In this document: piece by piece, positions 2,772 through 16,969 of the stretch
How the letters are laid out: every line of letters begins with the position of its first letter
Numbering within the stretch: the first letter of the stretch is position 1
From: Puniceicoccus vermicola
GTDB lineage: Bacteria > Verrucomicrobiota > Verrucomicrobiia > Opitutales > Puniceicoccaceae
Length of the DNA stretch: 35,014 nt
Direction: 5' to 3'
Assembly (NCBI RefSeq): GCF_014230055.1
Contig: NZ_JACHVA010000028.1
Span: 1 to 35,014 of the forward strand
Made by a program: the position numbers and the translations under genes
Notes under the pieces: model-generated
The model's input: the letters and a program-made list of their open reading frames with translations, nothing else
What the model was told of the DNA's origin: nothing
Database searches by the model: none

Positions 2772-5700
2772 TTACCCTGCAGCGGTTGCGATTGCCTCCG
2801 GCTCGAAAGCCAGATCCGACTGGAGCCACTTTTCGCACTCCTCAATGCTCATACCCTTTCGTGAAGCATAGTCCTCGATCTGATCTCGAGCGATTCGACC
2901 AACCCCGAAATATCGGGCCTCCGGGTGGGCAAAATAGAGGCCGGAGACCGAACTGGGGGGATTCATAGCGTAGCTGGTCGTCAGCGAAACTCCGATCTTC
3001 TTTTCCACTTCGAGCAGATCCCAAATCCCCTGCTTCTCCGTGTGGTCGGGAGCGGAAGGATACCCGGCAGCAGGACGGATGCTGCGGTAGCGTTCCTTAA
3101 TCATCCAATCGACATGAGGATTCACCGCACCGCGATCCGCCGACAACCGTTCCCCGAAGCGAAAGCCTTCCTCGCGCCCAAATCCCCAATTATCCCGCAC
3201 CTTTTTATGGCAGAACTCCGAAAGACCTTCGGCAAAACGATCAGCCAGCGCTTGAATCAAGATCGCCGTGTAGTCGTCTCCACTCTGTTTGAACGAAGCG
3301 GCGTAATCCTCGATCTCCTGGCCCGCCGTGCAGGCAAATGCCCCGACGTAGTCGATCTTGCCCGAAGTCTTCGGGGCAACGAAATCGGCCAGCGAGAGAT
3401 ACGGCTCATCGGCCGAGCTTTTTTCCTTCTGCTGACGCAGGAAACGAAAGGTATCCAGAACCGTCTTCCGCGAAGCGTCGCCATAGATCTCCACATCGTC
3501 TCCAATCGAATTCGCCGGCCACAATCCGAGGATTCCCCGGAGATGGACCCGCTTTCCGCTTACCAGATCATCGAGGATCCGGCGGGCATCGTCATAGAGC
3601 TTCGTGGCTTCCTCGCCACGCTGATGGTGAGTCAAGATCTTGGGAAAACTCCCGCGCATCTGCCAGGCATGGAAAAAGGGAGACCAGTCAAAATATTCAA
3701 TCACCTCTTCCGGCGAAATCGACTCGAGCAACTCCGTCCCCACCGTTTCGGGGACCAGCGGTTCATACGAATCCCAATCAGGCGAGAACGCCCGCTCCCG
3801 CGCTTCCACCAGAGGCACATATTTTGCCGAAGTCGCCGCCCCGGCCGCATGACGCTCGCGCGCCTTTTGGTGGGAGTCTTCCAGATCGATCAGGTACTGC
3901 TCCCTCGTCTTCTCGTTGGTCAAATGATTGCAGACCTCGGTGACGAGCGAGGCATCGCTCACATGAATCACAGGCCCGCTGTAGTGCGGTGCGATCTTAA
4001 TGGCGGTATGGGCTTTCGAGGTCGTCGCACCCCCGACCAAAATCGGCACGTTCATTCCCCGTTTCTCCATCTCCTTCGCGTTGGTGATCATCTCATCGAG
4101 CGAGGGCGTGATCAGACCGGACATCCCGATGAAGTCCGCGTTGTGCTCTCTCGCCGCATCGAGAATTTTGTCGAGCTCACACATCACTCCAAGGTCGACC
4201 ACCTTGTAGCCGTTGCACCCGAGGACCACTCCGACGATGTTTTTCCCGATGTCGTGCACATCGCCCCGAACGGTCGCGATGACAAAGGTTCCCGCCGAGC
4301 TGGAATCCTTTTTCTCCTCCTCCATGTAAGGGAGAAGATAGGCCACGGCCTTTTTCATGACCCGCGCACTCTTGACCACTTGAGGGAGAAACATCTTCCC
4401 CTCGCCGAAGAGCTTCCCAACGACCTTCATGCCGTCCATGAGCGGGCCCTCGATCACGTCGAGCGGACGGTCCAGCTTCTGCCGAGCCTCCTCGGTATCC
4501 TCCTCAATATGGCTCGCGATTCCGCGAACCAAGGCGTGCTCGATGCGTTTGCCCAAGTCTTGGGAACGCCAATCGCCTACCCCTTCAGCTTTTTTTTTTA
4601 CCGAATCTCCGGCAGGCACGGCTCCTTCGCCCCCTAGGAGGAATTTCTCGAGAATCTCCGGGTTCTTTTCACGGGAAGCTCGTTCGAAGAGCTCTTGCAA
4701 CACCTTCATCCCGCGAACCATGGCCGCACTCACCCGCTCTTCGGGACTCCCGCCAGCGCGGCCTTCCTTGATCGCCTCCGCATGCTCGATGAGCCGCTCG
4801 GTCGATTCAGGATTGCGGTTGAGGATGACATCGTCGACCAAGGTCTTCAGCGGCTCCTCGATCTTGTCGTAATCCATCAAGAGACCGGGATTCACGATCG
4901 CCATGTCGAGGCCAGCCTTTTGCGCGTGATGGAGGAATGATGCGTGCATCGCCTCCCGCACAGGATTGTTGCCACGGAAGGAGAACGAAACGTTCGAGAG
5001 ACCTCCACTGGTCAAGCAACCCGGGCAGCGCTTCTTCACTTCACGGACGGCCTCGATGAAGTTCACGGCATACGGGTTATGCTCCTCCATCCCGGTCGCG
5101 ACCGTGAGGATATTGAGGTCAAAAATGACGTCCTGAGGCTCGAATCCAACTTCCTCTGTGAGGATCCGGAATGAGCGCTCGGCGATTTCCACTTTGCCCT
5201 CCACCGAGACGGCCTGACCGTTCTCATCGAAAGCCATCACCACTGCGGCCGCACCGTAGCGAAGGATCTTCTGGGCCTGTTTGCGGAAAGCGTCTTCGCC
5301 CTCTTTCAGGCTAATCGAGTTCACGATTGGCTTGCCCTGCACACACTGCAGCCCCGCCTCGATCACCGACCACTTGGAACTGTCGATCATGAACGGCACC
5401 CGGGAGATATCCGGCTCGGAACCCAGCAGGTTGAGGAACTTGCGCATGCACTCCTCCCCTTCGAGCATGCCCTCGTCAAAGTTCACGTCCAATACGTGAG
5501 CGCCCTTCTCAATCTGAGAACTGGCAACCGTCAGCGCGCCCTCAAAATCTCCGGCTTTGATCAACTTCTTGAAGCGCGGAGAACCGGTCACATTTGCCCG
5601 TTCCCCCACCATCAGGAATCCTTCACCGGACCCGTCAAAATTCATCGGCTCCAATCCGCTCAATCGCAGACAACGCGTAATCTCTGGAACCACCCGTGGC

Positions 5701-6713
5701 GGAAACTCGGAAACTTCTTCCACCACCGCAGCGATGTGATCCGGAGTCGTTCCGCAGCATCCCCCGACGAGATTGACCAGCCCCTCGGTGGCAAAGCCCG
5801 CCAGCGCACTTCCCGTATGCTCCGGCGTTTCGTCATATCCGGTATCACTCAGAGGATTCGGCAAGCCCGCATTAGGATAAACGTGAACATAGGTATCCGC
5901 GACCCGCGAAAGTTCCTGCAGAAATGGCTTCATCAAATCCGCGCCGAGAGCACAGTTGAGACCCACGCAGAATGGCTTTGCATGCCGAACCGAATTCCAG
6001 AACGCCTCCACCGTCTGGCCGGACAAGGTCCGCCCGGACTGGTCCGTAATCGTCACCGACAGGATCACGGGGATCCGCTCGTTTCGCTCCTCGAAGAGAT
6101 CTTCAATCGCGTGGATCGAAGCTTTGAGATTCAGAGTATCGAAAGTCGTCTCCGGCAGGAGTAGATCCGCCCCCGCCTCGACGAGGCTCTTTGCCTGCTC
6201 ATAGTAAGCCGTCCGCAGTTGCTCGTAGGTGACGGCCCGGTATTCCGGACGGTTCACATCTGGAGAGAGCGAGGCCGTCCGGTTCGTCGGCCCCATCGCT
6301 CCCGCAACGAAAAGCTGACGCCCCTCGCGAGCCGAAATCTCATCAGCCACCTTGCGGGCCAACCGCACCGAGTCCCGGTTGATCCGATCCACCCAACTCT
6401 CGAGACCGTAATCCGCCTGGGCGATAGTCGTTCCACTGAAAGTGTTCGTCTCGACGATGTCCGAACCCGCTTCAAAAAATTTCCGGTGGATGTCTTCGAT
6501 GATCTCCGGACGCGTAATGCTGAGCAGATCGTTGTTCCCCTTCAAATCTCCCGGGACATCCTTCAGATCCTCATTGCGAAAGTCTTCCTCCGTCAGATTG
6601 TGACGCTGAATCATGGTGCCCATCGCTCCGTCCAAAAAGGCGATGCGCTTCTGAAAAATTTCCCGCAACTGCCCAAAGGACGCGGATTCGGGAATCTGTT
6701 TCTGCTTCGACAT
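2772..6713 (-). CDS. metH: Methionine synthase, cobalamin-dependent
   Basis: MetH transfers a methyl group from 5-methyltetrahydrofolate via cobalamin to homocysteine, giving methionine in the cytoplasm. All modules are visible. The homocysteine methyltransferase domain begins [13 protein letters not shown] and has zinc-ligand cysteines in GLNCALG and GGCCGTTP. The pterin-binding domain starts at [14 protein letters not shown]. The cobalamin cap and binding domain has [11 protein letters not shown] with the axial histidine near residue 820. The C-terminal AdoMet reactivation domain ends the protein. Length is about 1313 aa, against 1227 in E. coli. The excess includes a linker of roughly 50 residues between the folate and B12 modules that contains an A10 run (see 4590-4599). 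An ATG at 6731 would add six residues (MPTFCL); MSKQKQ at 6713 looks more natural. Neither has a Shine-Dalgarno sequence. Confidence 0.97.
4590..4599 (-). other. A10 homopolymer in metH (possible slippage site)
   Basis: On the coding strand metH has ten consecutive A encoding VKKKAEG, at about residue 705-711, inside the linker between the folate and cobalamin modules. One A lost leads to a stop (TAG) four codons after the run. One A gained leads to a stop (TGA) directly after the next codon. Both slippage directions therefore give a product of about 700 residues with only the homocysteine and folate domains. That slippage happens is inference. Confidence 0.5.
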
Positions 6714-6785
6714 GAGACAAAAAGTAGGCATTTCCCAAGAGGGATCAACTATTAATCCATCAACGAATCAGGATTTATTGATATG

Positions 6786-9259: not shown

Positions 9260-10396
9260 GTGGAAGGTGGATACCAAGTCATTGCCCGTCGCTGGAGGCC
9301 GAAGCGCTTCGAGGATCTCGTTGGGCAGGAACATATCGTCCGCACGCTCTCGAATGCGATTGAGCGGGAGCGGCTGGCGCACGCCTACCTATTTATCGGC
9401 CCCCGTGGCACCGGGAAAACGAGTACCGCCCGCCTTCTCGCCTGCGCCCTGAACGGTTCGGAGAAACCTACGGTCAACTTCGATGCCGATTCCGACTTGG
9501 TTCAGGCAATAATGGGGGGCAGTTGCATGGATGTCATCGAGATCGATGGTGCCTCCAACAACTCCGTCGAGCAGGTTCGCGACCTCCGCGAGGATTGCCA
9601 ATACCGCCCATCCCAGTGCCCCTTCAAGATCTACATCATCGACGAGGTGCACATGCTCTCGCAGGCGGCTTTCAACGCTCTCCTCAAGACTCTCGAAGAA
9701 CCTCCCCCTCACGTTAAATTCATTTTTGCGACGACTGAGAGCAATAAAGTGCTCCCGACCATCGTCTCCCGCTGCCAACGCCTCGAATTTCGCCCGATCG
9801 ACGATGCAGAAATCGTCCGTCGCCTCGGGGAGATCTCCAAAGCTGAGGAAATTAAGGTCGAGGACTCCGCCCTGCGGGCCATCGCCAAGCTGGCCAACGG
9901 TGGAATGCGCGATGCACAGTCCATTCTCGATCAATTGATTTCCTTCTGCGGCACCGAAATCAGCGAAGGGGATGTCCTCTCCGTCTTCGGGATGGCCGGC
10001 GAAGCGGACTTGGCCAAACTCGGACGCTCCCTCGCCGAGAGCGACTACGAAGGCCTGGTTTCCTGTGCCGACCGCTTCAGCCGCGAAGGGAAGGACCTTT
10101 CCCGGATCCTTACCGATCTTTCCGGACTCATCCGGGAAGCCCTGCTGGAAGCCATTCGTTCGGGGGGATCGAGCAACAAGCTGGGCCCGGTTCTCGAGAT
10201 CGAACCTCTTCTGCGCATCCTCGACGCCCTCAAGGCGGGGGAACGGGCCGTGCAAAAGGGCCTCTCTGAACGCGTCAATTTTGAGGTTACGCTCCTTCGC
10301 GCCGTCGACCACGCCCGCACTCGACCCATCGATACTGTGATTCGCCAAATCAGCGACCTCGTTGGAACTGAACCTGCGGGTCAAAAAAAAAATTGA
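9260..10396 (+). CDS. dnaX: DNA polymerase III gamma product (zero-frame reading of dnaX)
   Basis: DnaX is the ATPase of the clamp loader. Visible motifs are Walker [10 protein letters not shown] (Lys53), Walker [11 protein letters not shown], sensor 1 TTES, the arginine finger SRCQR, and the conserved opening [19 protein letters not shown]. The GTG at 9260 is preferred because the family starts just before YQV; the frame stays open to 9188. In this frame the protein ends QKKN-stop directly after a run of ten A, giving about 378 aa (domains I-III, gamma-like). The cysteine cluster of the usual zinc module is missing: between Cys62 and Cys89 there is no further cysteine. It lies upstream of rpe and probably shares its transcript. 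Confidence 0.93.
10383..10392 (+). other. A10 slippery run in dnaX
   Basis: Ten A follow GGTC. In the zero frame they read CAA AAA AAA AAT TGA and terminate. If one A is skipped or lost, translation continues as [12 protein letters not shown] for a further 140 codons or so to 10817. Reaching this frame requires a +1 change (or -2). The -1 frame stops at a TAA about ten codons later. Thermus thermophilus dnaX uses transcriptional slippage on an A9 run for the same purpose, so a transcript-slippage mechanism is the most natural reading. A genome base-calling error of one A is the alternative. Confidence 0.75.
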
Positions 10397-10817
10397 GCGA
10401 GTCCCCCCGGGCCGTGAACCCGTAAAAGAGGCCGCAACGGCCTCTCCTCCCCCCTCAGAGAAACCTCCAGAGCCCGAAAAATCGGACGACGAGGAGGTAG
10501 ATTCCGGAAATCTCGAGGATACCACGGACTACTCTCCCCACGCCATCTATGGTTCGGATGAAGAGGATTCCAACGAACCTCCCCCCGACTACGAACCTCC
10601 CAAGCCCAAGAAGGCTCGGAAGCCCAAGCAATGGGAAGATGGGGAACACATCGACCTCGAAGCGGCCGTGGCAGAGGCCTCCGACCTCCCGGTCTCCGTC
10701 AACGAATTGGAGGCTCTCATCGCCAAAACTCCGCCCGAACTCCGCAAATTCCTCGAAGATGAGTTCAGTGCCGAATTTCTTGGACCCATTGTCGTCGATC
10801 CGAAAAAATTAGACTAA
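10393..10817 (+). CDS. dnaX: dnaX tau-specific C-terminal segment (+1 frame)
   Basis: This stretch of about 140 codons has no convincing start of its own: the only in-frame initiator is a TTG at 10362 without a ribosome binding site, and it overlaps the gamma frame. It begins with a proline-, lysine- and acid-rich linker ([17 protein letters not shown]) and ends in a compact predicted domain ([20 protein letters not shown] to DPKKLD). This composition fits the tau-type extension that contacts polymerase alpha and helicase. Joined to the preceding frame through the A10 run, it would give a tau of about 518 aa. It ends 14 bp before rpe. Confidence 0.75.
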
Positions 10818-16048: not shown

Positions 16049-16969
16049 ATGTCCTACCACATCGTCAACATCGACTCTCCCCGCTGCAGCATCAGTTGCA
16101 AACACGGTCAGTTGACCTGTACGAACAAAGACGGAAGTCGCCAGCAAGCTCCCATAGAAGATATCGCGGCAATCGTCATAACGAGCTTTTCCGCTCAACT
16201 TCACAGCCACCTATTACTCGAAGCTGCCAAGCACGGAGTTGCTCTTGTCATCTGTGAACGTTTCCAACCAATAAGCCTCCTTCTTCCAGCAAATCGCTCC
16301 ACCGACACCCTTCTGACAAAAGCCGCTCTCAGTCTCGACAAAAAAAAAGTCGATACTCTCTGGAGAAAAACCGTCGATGCGAAGTGTGCAAACCAGGCAT
16401 CGCTCGCAGCTGAAATGGCTCCAAACCATCCAAAGATAGAAACGCTACGAAAAAGAGCTGCAAGCAAAGCGCCCGGAAAAGAAAGCACCTGCGCTCGCTA
16501 CTATTGGGGCATTTATGCCGAATCTCTTCATTTGGAAAATTTCAAACGTGGACGGGAGGAAGGAGGGGCGAACGATCTACTCAACTTCGGCTACGCAGTG
16601 CTCCTTTCTCTTCTCCTTCAGAAACTCTTTGCCTACGGGCTCGACCCCACTCTCGGAATCTCCCATGAAATTCGCGAGCGCTCGACACCGCTGGCCTACG
16701 ATTTGATGGAACCTTTCCGCCCTTGCGTCGATTGGCGGGTGGCAAGATGGCTCCAAGAGGAGACGGGCATGGGTGACTACAGAGTCGATGGCAAGTTCCG
16801 ACGCTACGTGACAGATTTCACTATGGAACGTATCGGATACCTCGGCATCGAGATGGACTTTCGAAACTGTTTGGAATCAGTCGTTCGCAGTTTCCGGCAA
16901 GCGGTCATGACAGGACAAACGCGAACCTATAAACCATGGACTCCCCCCAATTCAAAATGGGCTGGTTAG
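16049..16969 (+). CDS. cas1: Cas1 integrase, type II
   Basis: Cas1 forms the spacer-integration complex with Cas2. It has 306 aa. The N-terminal beta domain is followed by the helical catalytic domain with the metal ligands Glu145 (KESTCARYYWG), His206 (GISHE) and Glu221 (LMEPFRP), positions close to those of other type II Cas1 proteins. The GRFRR-like segment DGKFRRYVTDF is also typical. It starts 4 bp after the cas9 stop and overlaps cas2 by 34 bp, so cas9-cas1-cas2 form one operon. No csn2 or cas4 is present, which fits subtype II-C. An A8 run (about 16341-16348) encodes DKKK. Confidence 0.96.
   Translation: MSYHIVNIDSPRCSISCKHGQLTCTNKDGSRQQAPIEDIAAIVITSFSAQLHSHLLLEAAKHGVALVICERFQPISLLLPANRSTDTLLTKAALSLDKKKVDTLWRKTVDAKCANQASLAAEMAPNHPKIETLRKRAASKAPGKESTCARYYWGIYAESLHLENFKRGREEGGANDLLNFGYAVLLSLLLQKLFAYGLDPTLGISHEIRERSTPLAYDLMEPFRPCVDWRVARWLQEETGMGDYRVDGKFRRYVTDFTMERIGYLGIEMDFRNCLESVVRSFRQAVMTGQTRTYKPWTPPNSKWAG

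What the first reader, a model, noticed from the sequence alone, without database searches (positions are those of the whole stretch)
10383..10392. dnaX split by an A10 run: gamma in frame 0, tau in frame +1
The zero frame stops immediately after ten A. A single-base shift restores about 140 codons of acidic/proline-rich tau-like sequence that has no start of its own. Thermus thermophilus dnaX uses transcriptional slippage on an A9 run, while E. coli uses -1 ribosomal frameshifting. Here the -1 frame is closed within about ten codons, so the E. coli mechanism is excluded and slippage (-1 or +2 A in the mRNA) is the likely route. This would make the long form the slipped product. If the genome really has nine A, tau is the direct product and gamma the slipped one.
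Basis: partly seen in the sequence, partly recalled or inferred. Interest (0 to 1): 0.72.

Follow-up and report, generated by a model that had tools for sequence, protein, structure and literature searches.

The report
DnaX tau made by A-run slippage
A run of ten A's splits the bacterial gene for a DNA-replication clamp loader into a short and a long product; relatives keep the run while the reading frame behind it changes, so the long product is most likely made when RNA polymerase slips on the A's, a known trick that a methionine-making gene nearby may share.

Summary
Window 10383-10392 is A10 near the 3' end of dnaX. Frame 0 stops at once (CAA AAA AAA AAT TGA); a conserved tail of about 140 codons lies in the +1 frame.

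It is no sequencing accident. Both congeners searched have A10, an immediate stop and the +1 tail. Of 125 usable dnaX genes from the same order, 115 have an uninterrupted A9-A13 at this junction. The frame of the tail varies: -1 in 76, 0 in 25 (one of them A8), +1 in 15. The two other frames close within 10 codons in 105 of 115, against 10-14% at control positions. Frame indifference, a floor at nine A's and no general stem-loop fit transcriptional slippage better than ribosomal frameshifting. No RNA or protein was seen.

The kind is known: Thermus dnaX, and two-ORF A10 dnaX genes reported in 2013 (all in the -1 direction). The +1 arrangement and the frame flipping within one order are the additions.

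An unexpected lead: metH in the same window carries A10 between its folate and cobalamin modules. A9/A10 is kept in 32 of 34 long-linker metH genes read, mostly with early stops in both other frames. dnaX and metH were the only runs of nine or more A's found conserved in all three species of the genus.

The parts
9260..10396 (+). dnaX frame 0: gamma, 378 aa from GTG 9260 (start inferred)
   Evidence: TIGR02397; start conserved in four family genomes; length
10383..10392 (+). A10 slippage run
   Evidence: conserved as A9-A13 in 115 of 125 usable order members
10394..10396 (+). TGA ending gamma right behind the run
   Evidence: immediate stop also in both congeners
10395..10817 (+). tau tail in the +1 frame, with its stop
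   Evidence: C-terminal part conserved in the congeners with mostly third-position changes; no Pfam match
4590..4599 (-). A10 on the coding strand of metH (2772-6731): possible second slippage site, separate from dnaX
   Evidence: A10 and A9 at the same place in the congeners; A9/A10 in 32 of 34 long-linker metH read

Best explanation
dnaX makes two clamp-loader subunits from one gene through transcriptional slippage at A10. RNA polymerase adds or drops A's in the run, so the mRNA pool is mixed in length. A10 mRNA, read normally, gives gamma (378 aa). A11 mRNA gives a gamma-like protein of 388 aa. Only mRNAs with A9 or A12 join the +1 tail and give tau (518 or 519 aa). Here gamma is therefore the directly encoded product and tau the slipped one. 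Shown: the frames, the stops, their conservation, and the change of frame among relatives. Inferred: that polymerase slips here, that both proteins are made, their ratio, and that the tail does what tau tails do.
For: Run of nine or more A's at this junction in 115 of 125 usable order members, with the tail in all three frame relations and at least 13 changes of frame on a quick tree. The two non-tau frames close within 10 codons in 105 of 115, against 13.6% at positions in the tails and 10.3% in the cores. No general stem-loop behind the run: mean z -0.42, control -0.12. A floor at nine: 29 A9, 81 A10, 5 longer, one A8, while ribosome sliding gave little product at A9 or A10 and much at A11 in a reconstituted system (PMC4363877). 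The E. coli heptamer is in frame 0 in 49 of 76 -1 genes but in only 1 of 15 +1 and 1 of 24 frame-0 genes. Antonov 2013 uses opposite directions in genes of one function as the sign of slippage.
Against: No cDNA, RNA-seq or protein evidence. The window needs loss of one A or gain of two; reports quoted in PMC6260861 mostly find insertions commoner than deletions, although one in vitro A11 case had E. coli polymerase deleting more. The window and the +1 genes have somewhat more downstream structure than the rest (window z -2.05; 3 of 15 +1 genes below -2). In -1 genes with the E. coli heptamer a ribosomal share is possible. Of the 115 genes, 10 have the second other-frame stop beyond 10 codons and 7 beyond 15.
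Confidence: 0.85

Rival explanations
1. The shift happens on the ribosome: +1 shifting, or sliding of lysyl-tRNA on the A-run of a uniform A10 mRNA, gives tau.
For: AAA in the P site can re-pair in +1 on this run. E. coli ribosomes slide on long A-runs (PMC4363877). L127 has A6, the heptamer A_AAA_AAC, tau in -1 and a strong hairpin 8 nt downstream, so ribosomal shifting probably occurs in this order too. In Antonov 2013 another gene's -1 cassettes with 7, 9 and 11 A's shifted with 10, 40 and 63% efficiency in E. coli; the passage seen does not separate transcript from ribosome.
Against: Sliding was little at A9 and A10, the commonest lengths here. All three frame relations occur. No general stem-loop or Shine-Dalgarno-like site.
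Confidence: 0.09
2. The genome really has A9 and the assembly miscounts; tau is then the direct product and gamma the slipped one.
For: Draft assembly (143 contigs); homopolymers are error-prone; many relatives have A9 with tau in frame 0.
Against: Both congeners independently give A10 with the same frames; very close relatives agree with each other in run and frame.
Confidence: 0.03
3. DNA-level phase variation: run length varies among cells and switches tau on and off.
For: Run length does change between species.
Against: A conserved run in a replication gene, with stops kept close in the two other frames in 105 of 115 genes, fits constant production of both forms better.
Confidence: 0.04
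4. The tail is a separate gene, translated by re-initiation.
For: The +1 ORF has a TTG at 10362 and an ATG at 10549.
Against: The tail is fused in frame in 25 relatives; 82 of 91 split genes have no ATG in the tail frame near the run, other start codons not tested.
Confidence: 0.02

Closest known systems
Thermus thermophilus dnaX, transcriptional slippage at A9 (Larsen 2000, not held; read as passages in PMC1088944, PMC5009743, PMC3711429)
   Same: Uninterrupted A-run late in dnaX, stops close by in the other frames, gamma and tau from one gene
   Different: Thermus has tau in frame 0 and gamma slipped; here gamma is in frame 0 and tau lies in +1
Two-ORF dnaX of Antonov 2013 (PMC3711429, passages)
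   Same: gamma in frame 0, recoding needed for tau, ten A's in nine of their 17 genes, slippage inferred
   Different: Theirs are all in the -1 direction; this one is +1. Their supplement and species list were not seen, so overlap with this order is possible
E. coli dnaX -1 programmed ribosomal frameshift (PMC5009743, PMC3711429, passages)
   Same: Same two products from the same gene
   Different: Uses A_AAA_AAG, a Shine-Dalgarno-like site and a stem-loop, and makes gamma by shifting; L127 resembles it more than the window does

Membership tests
DnaX (gamma/tau) | DnaX N-terminal ATPase and clamp-loader domains | tested here: met
   TIGR02397 396 bits, cut-off 250; PF13177, PF22608 and PF12169 above their gathering scores
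DnaX (gamma/tau) | tau tail that binds the polymerase and the helicase | tested here: inconclusive
   No Pfam family on the window tail or on four relatives' tails; a short C-terminal motif is shared; binding not testable
Slippage dnaX, Thermus type | Uninterrupted run of nine or more A's at the gamma/tau junction | tested here: met
   A10; 115 of 125 usable relatives
Slippage dnaX, Thermus type | Stops close behind the run in the frames that do not lead to tau | tested here: met
   Window: frame 0 at 1 codon, -1 at 10 codons; 105 of 115 relatives within 10
Slippage dnaX, Thermus type | tau encoded in frame 0 | tested here: not met
   tau is in +1 in the window; frame 0 in 25 relatives
Slippage dnaX, Thermus type | Mixed A lengths in mRNA and both proteins made | not testable with these tools
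   No RNA or protein data
Two-ORF dnaX of Antonov 2013 | gamma in frame 0 and tau only by recoding at a poly-A run | tested here: met
Two-ORF dnaX of Antonov 2013 | -1 direction | tested here: not met
   +1 in the window; 76 order members are -1
E. coli dnaX -1 frameshift | A_AAA_AAG in frame 0, with the -1 frame separating gamma and tau | tested here: not met
   Window reads A_AAA_AAT and its -1 frame closes after 10 codons
E. coli dnaX -1 frameshift | Upstream Shine-Dalgarno-like site and nearby downstream stem-loop | tested here: inconclusive
   No Shine-Dalgarno-like motif. Window downstream z -2.05, but its strongest hairpin starts about 34 nt on; congeners z -1.32 and -1.22

The most novel reading that the evidence does not exclude
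This order uses programmed transcriptional slippage in more than dnaX. metH, about 6 kb away in the window, has a lineage-specific insert between its folate and cobalamin modules that ends in A9/A10 and, mostly, early stops in both other frames. A share of transcripts would then give a MetH of 714-718 aa without cobalamin and reactivation domains, beside the full enzyme of 1319 aa: a Thermus-type slippage gene outside replication.
Probability: 0.65. Interest if true: 0.72.

Novelty: new variant of a known kind. Interest (0 to 1): 0.58.

Why it matters
One bacterial order keeps a homopolymer at one junction while the frame behind it flips between all three states. That is good comparative evidence for recoding at the level of RNA polymerase, and it offers natural pairs, differing little besides run length, in which the direct and the slipped product swap places. 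It also bears on annotation, because genes of this build look like a gamma-only gene plus an orphan ORF. If metH proves to be another case, programmed slippage in these bacteria reaches central metabolism and can be sought by looking for conserved A9/A10 with stops in both other frames.

Tried and rejected
E. coli-type -1 frameshifting in the window: rejected (wrong frame, wrong heptamer). Sequencing error as cause of the split: unlikely, both congeners agree. Separate downstream gene: rejected, relatives carry the tail fused. A conserved stem-loop: sought in 115 genes, not general. Chance: a run alone is not rare enough (38 in the genome); conservation makes the case. Pfam on the tail and on the metH linker piece: no informative match.

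Limits of the survey. One search found dnaX in 344 of 372 order genomes but printed only part of the places. I read 110 stretches (30 loci and 80 fetched), taken from the printed, better-matching ones, plus the family loci and the 80 loci: 194 loci, 176 distinct. In-group: 129, with L007-L037, L046 and L054 counted in by similarity, tree or record title; order membership of named records was not tested separately. Four were dropped (L012, L177, L195 at contig ends; L032 with a broken core frame), leaving 125: 31 from named contigs, 94 from genome searches. Families f7 and f25-f28 are not sampled through the genome searches. The run was sought from 15 nt before to 110 nt after the anchor. The tail's frame was taken as the longest open frame after the run. 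The tree is a quick one, with 52 of 172 inner branches open, so 13 changes is rough. The order's name (Opitutales) is inferred from titles of the nearest named records.

Literature (open-licence PMC only). For dnaX slippage with Verrucomicrobia or Opitutus, searches returned 1, 0 and 1 paper, each time only Antonov 2013; its text has no 'Opitutus' or 'Coraliomargarita'. For metH: searches matched 'meth' and are useless; one search listed 15 of 81 papers, none on metH slippage by title and start of abstract; one search found one paper with both terms (PMC10689751, start of abstract only). That metH slippage is unreported rests alone. Searches are listings. Papers were seen as passages (PMC3711429, PMC5009743, PMC1088944, PMC6260861) or as outline and one part of the Results (PMC4363877); none was read whole.

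Full report
The observation. The window has A10 at 10383-10392, inside the 3' end of dnaX. The gene matches TIGR02397 well above its cut-off and is the only strong match in the genome. Frame 0 ends CAA AAA AAA AAT TGA. The -1 frame closes 10 codons on, and the +1 frame stays open to 10817. From the conserved GTG at 9260, A10 mRNA would give 378 aa, A9 518, A11 388 and A12 519.

Not an artefact. The two other genus members held, 92% and 84% identical in the DnaX core, have exactly A10, an immediate stop and the tail in +1. In the last 45 codons of the tail, changes are commonest at third and rarest at second codon positions in all three species pairs (14/5/24, 16/5/24 and 17/9/31 at positions 1/2/3), with 25-33 of 45 residues identical. 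Over the whole tail, identity is 41-47%; most of it is an acidic, proline-rich linker. So the +1 frame is under protein-level constraint although the genome does not join it to the first frame.

The lineage. I compared 129 distinct in-group dnaX genes, 125 usable. Of these 115 have an uninterrupted A9 or longer at the junction: 29 A9, 81 A10, 2 A11, 2 A12, 1 A13. One has A8 (L145) and nine have no run of eight or more there (L022, L033, L035, L036, L046, L054, L127, L130, L143). The cores of the same genes hold no run of nine in 135,000 nt. Of 47 outgroup genes, 6 have a run of nine or more after the anchor, at offsets from 2 to 153 nt; L056 and L059 have two each. Among the 116 genes with a run of eight or more, the tail lies in -1 in 76, in frame 0 in 25 and in +1 in 15; for runs of nine or more a quick tree needs at least 13 changes. 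Close relatives show how: L122 and L124 (A9, tau in 0) and L159 (A10, tau in +1) share almost the same context. Wherever the tail lies, the other two frames close within 10 codons in 105 of 115 genes: 17 of 24 for frame 0, 14 of 15 for +1, 74 of 76 for -1. At control positions the figure is 13.6% in the tails and 10.3% in the cores. Lysine codons in the cores are AAA in 754 of 1927 cases, whereas each run holds two or three consecutive AAA codons.

How it works. A site whose run stays while its frame changes fits an event that ignores frame. Transcriptional slippage does: the mRNA pool holds several A lengths, one class in three joins the tail and the other two stop early. Antonov 2013 used the same reasoning. 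The length floor agrees: slippage on runs of nine or more A's is described in the passages seen, while ribosome sliding gave little product at A9 or A10 and robust product at A11. E. coli-type shifting would need its heptamer, present in frame 0 in 49 of 76 -1 genes but 1 of 15 +1 and 1 of 24 frame-0 genes, and a stem-loop, which is not general (mean z -0.42, control -0.12). Against a clean picture, the +1 genes have more structure (mean z -0.96, 3 of 15 below -2) and the window itself z -2.05. A ribosomal share in the -1 genes is possible. L127 is a telling exception: A6, the heptamer A_AAA_AAC, tau in -1 and a strong hairpin 8 nt downstream (z -2.75), as if ribosomal shifting had replaced slippage. 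The weak point in the window is direction: tau needs loss of one A or gain of two, and insertions are mostly reported as commoner. Tau may therefore be the minor product here; that is a prediction, not a result.

What is known. Thermus dnaX is the founding slippage case, with tau in frame 0 (original paper not held). Two-ORF dnaX genes were described in 2013: 17 genes from 12 genera, nine with ten A's, all in the -1 direction. The window is the same kind in another arrangement.

A second site. I compared runs of nine or more A's in the three genus members: 38 of 38 in the window's genome, 27 of 30 in G002 (three not fetched), 17 of 17 in G003. Only dnaX and metH had the run at the same place in all three. 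A third, shared by two species, lies beside an SRP RNA gene. In metH the run follows a stretch of about 59 residues (654-712) for which a solved methionine synthase of 1265 aa (9ssp, human by my recall) has five, between the folate and cobalamin modules. Of 372 order genomes searched with this linker, 37 matched; I read 34 of them. Of these 32 have A9 (28) or A10 (4), with full length in frame 0; L249 and L252 have none. Both other frames stop within 5 codons in 28 of 32 and within 12 in 30 of 32, against 4.4% and 17.3% at other positions. The 11 short-linker loci read have no run of nine. Slipped products would be 714-718 of 1319 aa. By my count, 19 of the 34 come from one family (f11), so they are not independent. 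The function of a short form is unknown; a dead end that tunes enzyme level, or a separate substrate-binding half, are guesses.

Verdict. The kind is known; the +1 arrangement, the frame flipping across the order and the metH lead are what is new.

Noticed in passing
window 4590-4599 (- strand), in metH 2772-6731: In-frame A10 between the folate and cobalamin modules, with stops in both other frames 1 and 4 codons on. A9/A10 at the same place in both congeners and in 32 of 34 long-linker metH read: possible second slippage gene.
   Followed up: partly
L127 (G166), dnaX junction: A6 instead of the long run, heptamer A_AAA_AAC, tau in -1 and a strong hairpin 8 nt downstream: looks like ribosomal frameshifting in place of slippage.
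   Followed up: partly
L022, L130, L143, dnaX junction: No long A-run, and frame 0 reads straight through into the tail, so only tau is directly encoded.
   Followed up: no
window 16340-16348, in ORF 16049-16969: A9 inside a cas1-like gene (PF01867). The gene was found in neither congener, so conservation could not be tested.
   Followed up: no
L056 and L059, 79 nt after the dnaX anchor: A10 with tau in frame 0 and stops within 11 codons in both other frames, in records titled Lentisphaerae and Kiritimatiellales: perhaps a separate Thermus-type site.
   Followed up: no
metH of order genomes such as L257, L258, L260: Open frames of about 900 aa instead of about 1250, so part of methionine synthase may be encoded elsewhere.
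   Followed up: no
L226 about 2525-2533 and L290 about 701-710: Run of nine or ten T's directly behind an SRP RNA gene, conserved between two species: ordinary terminator by my reading.
   Followed up: yes
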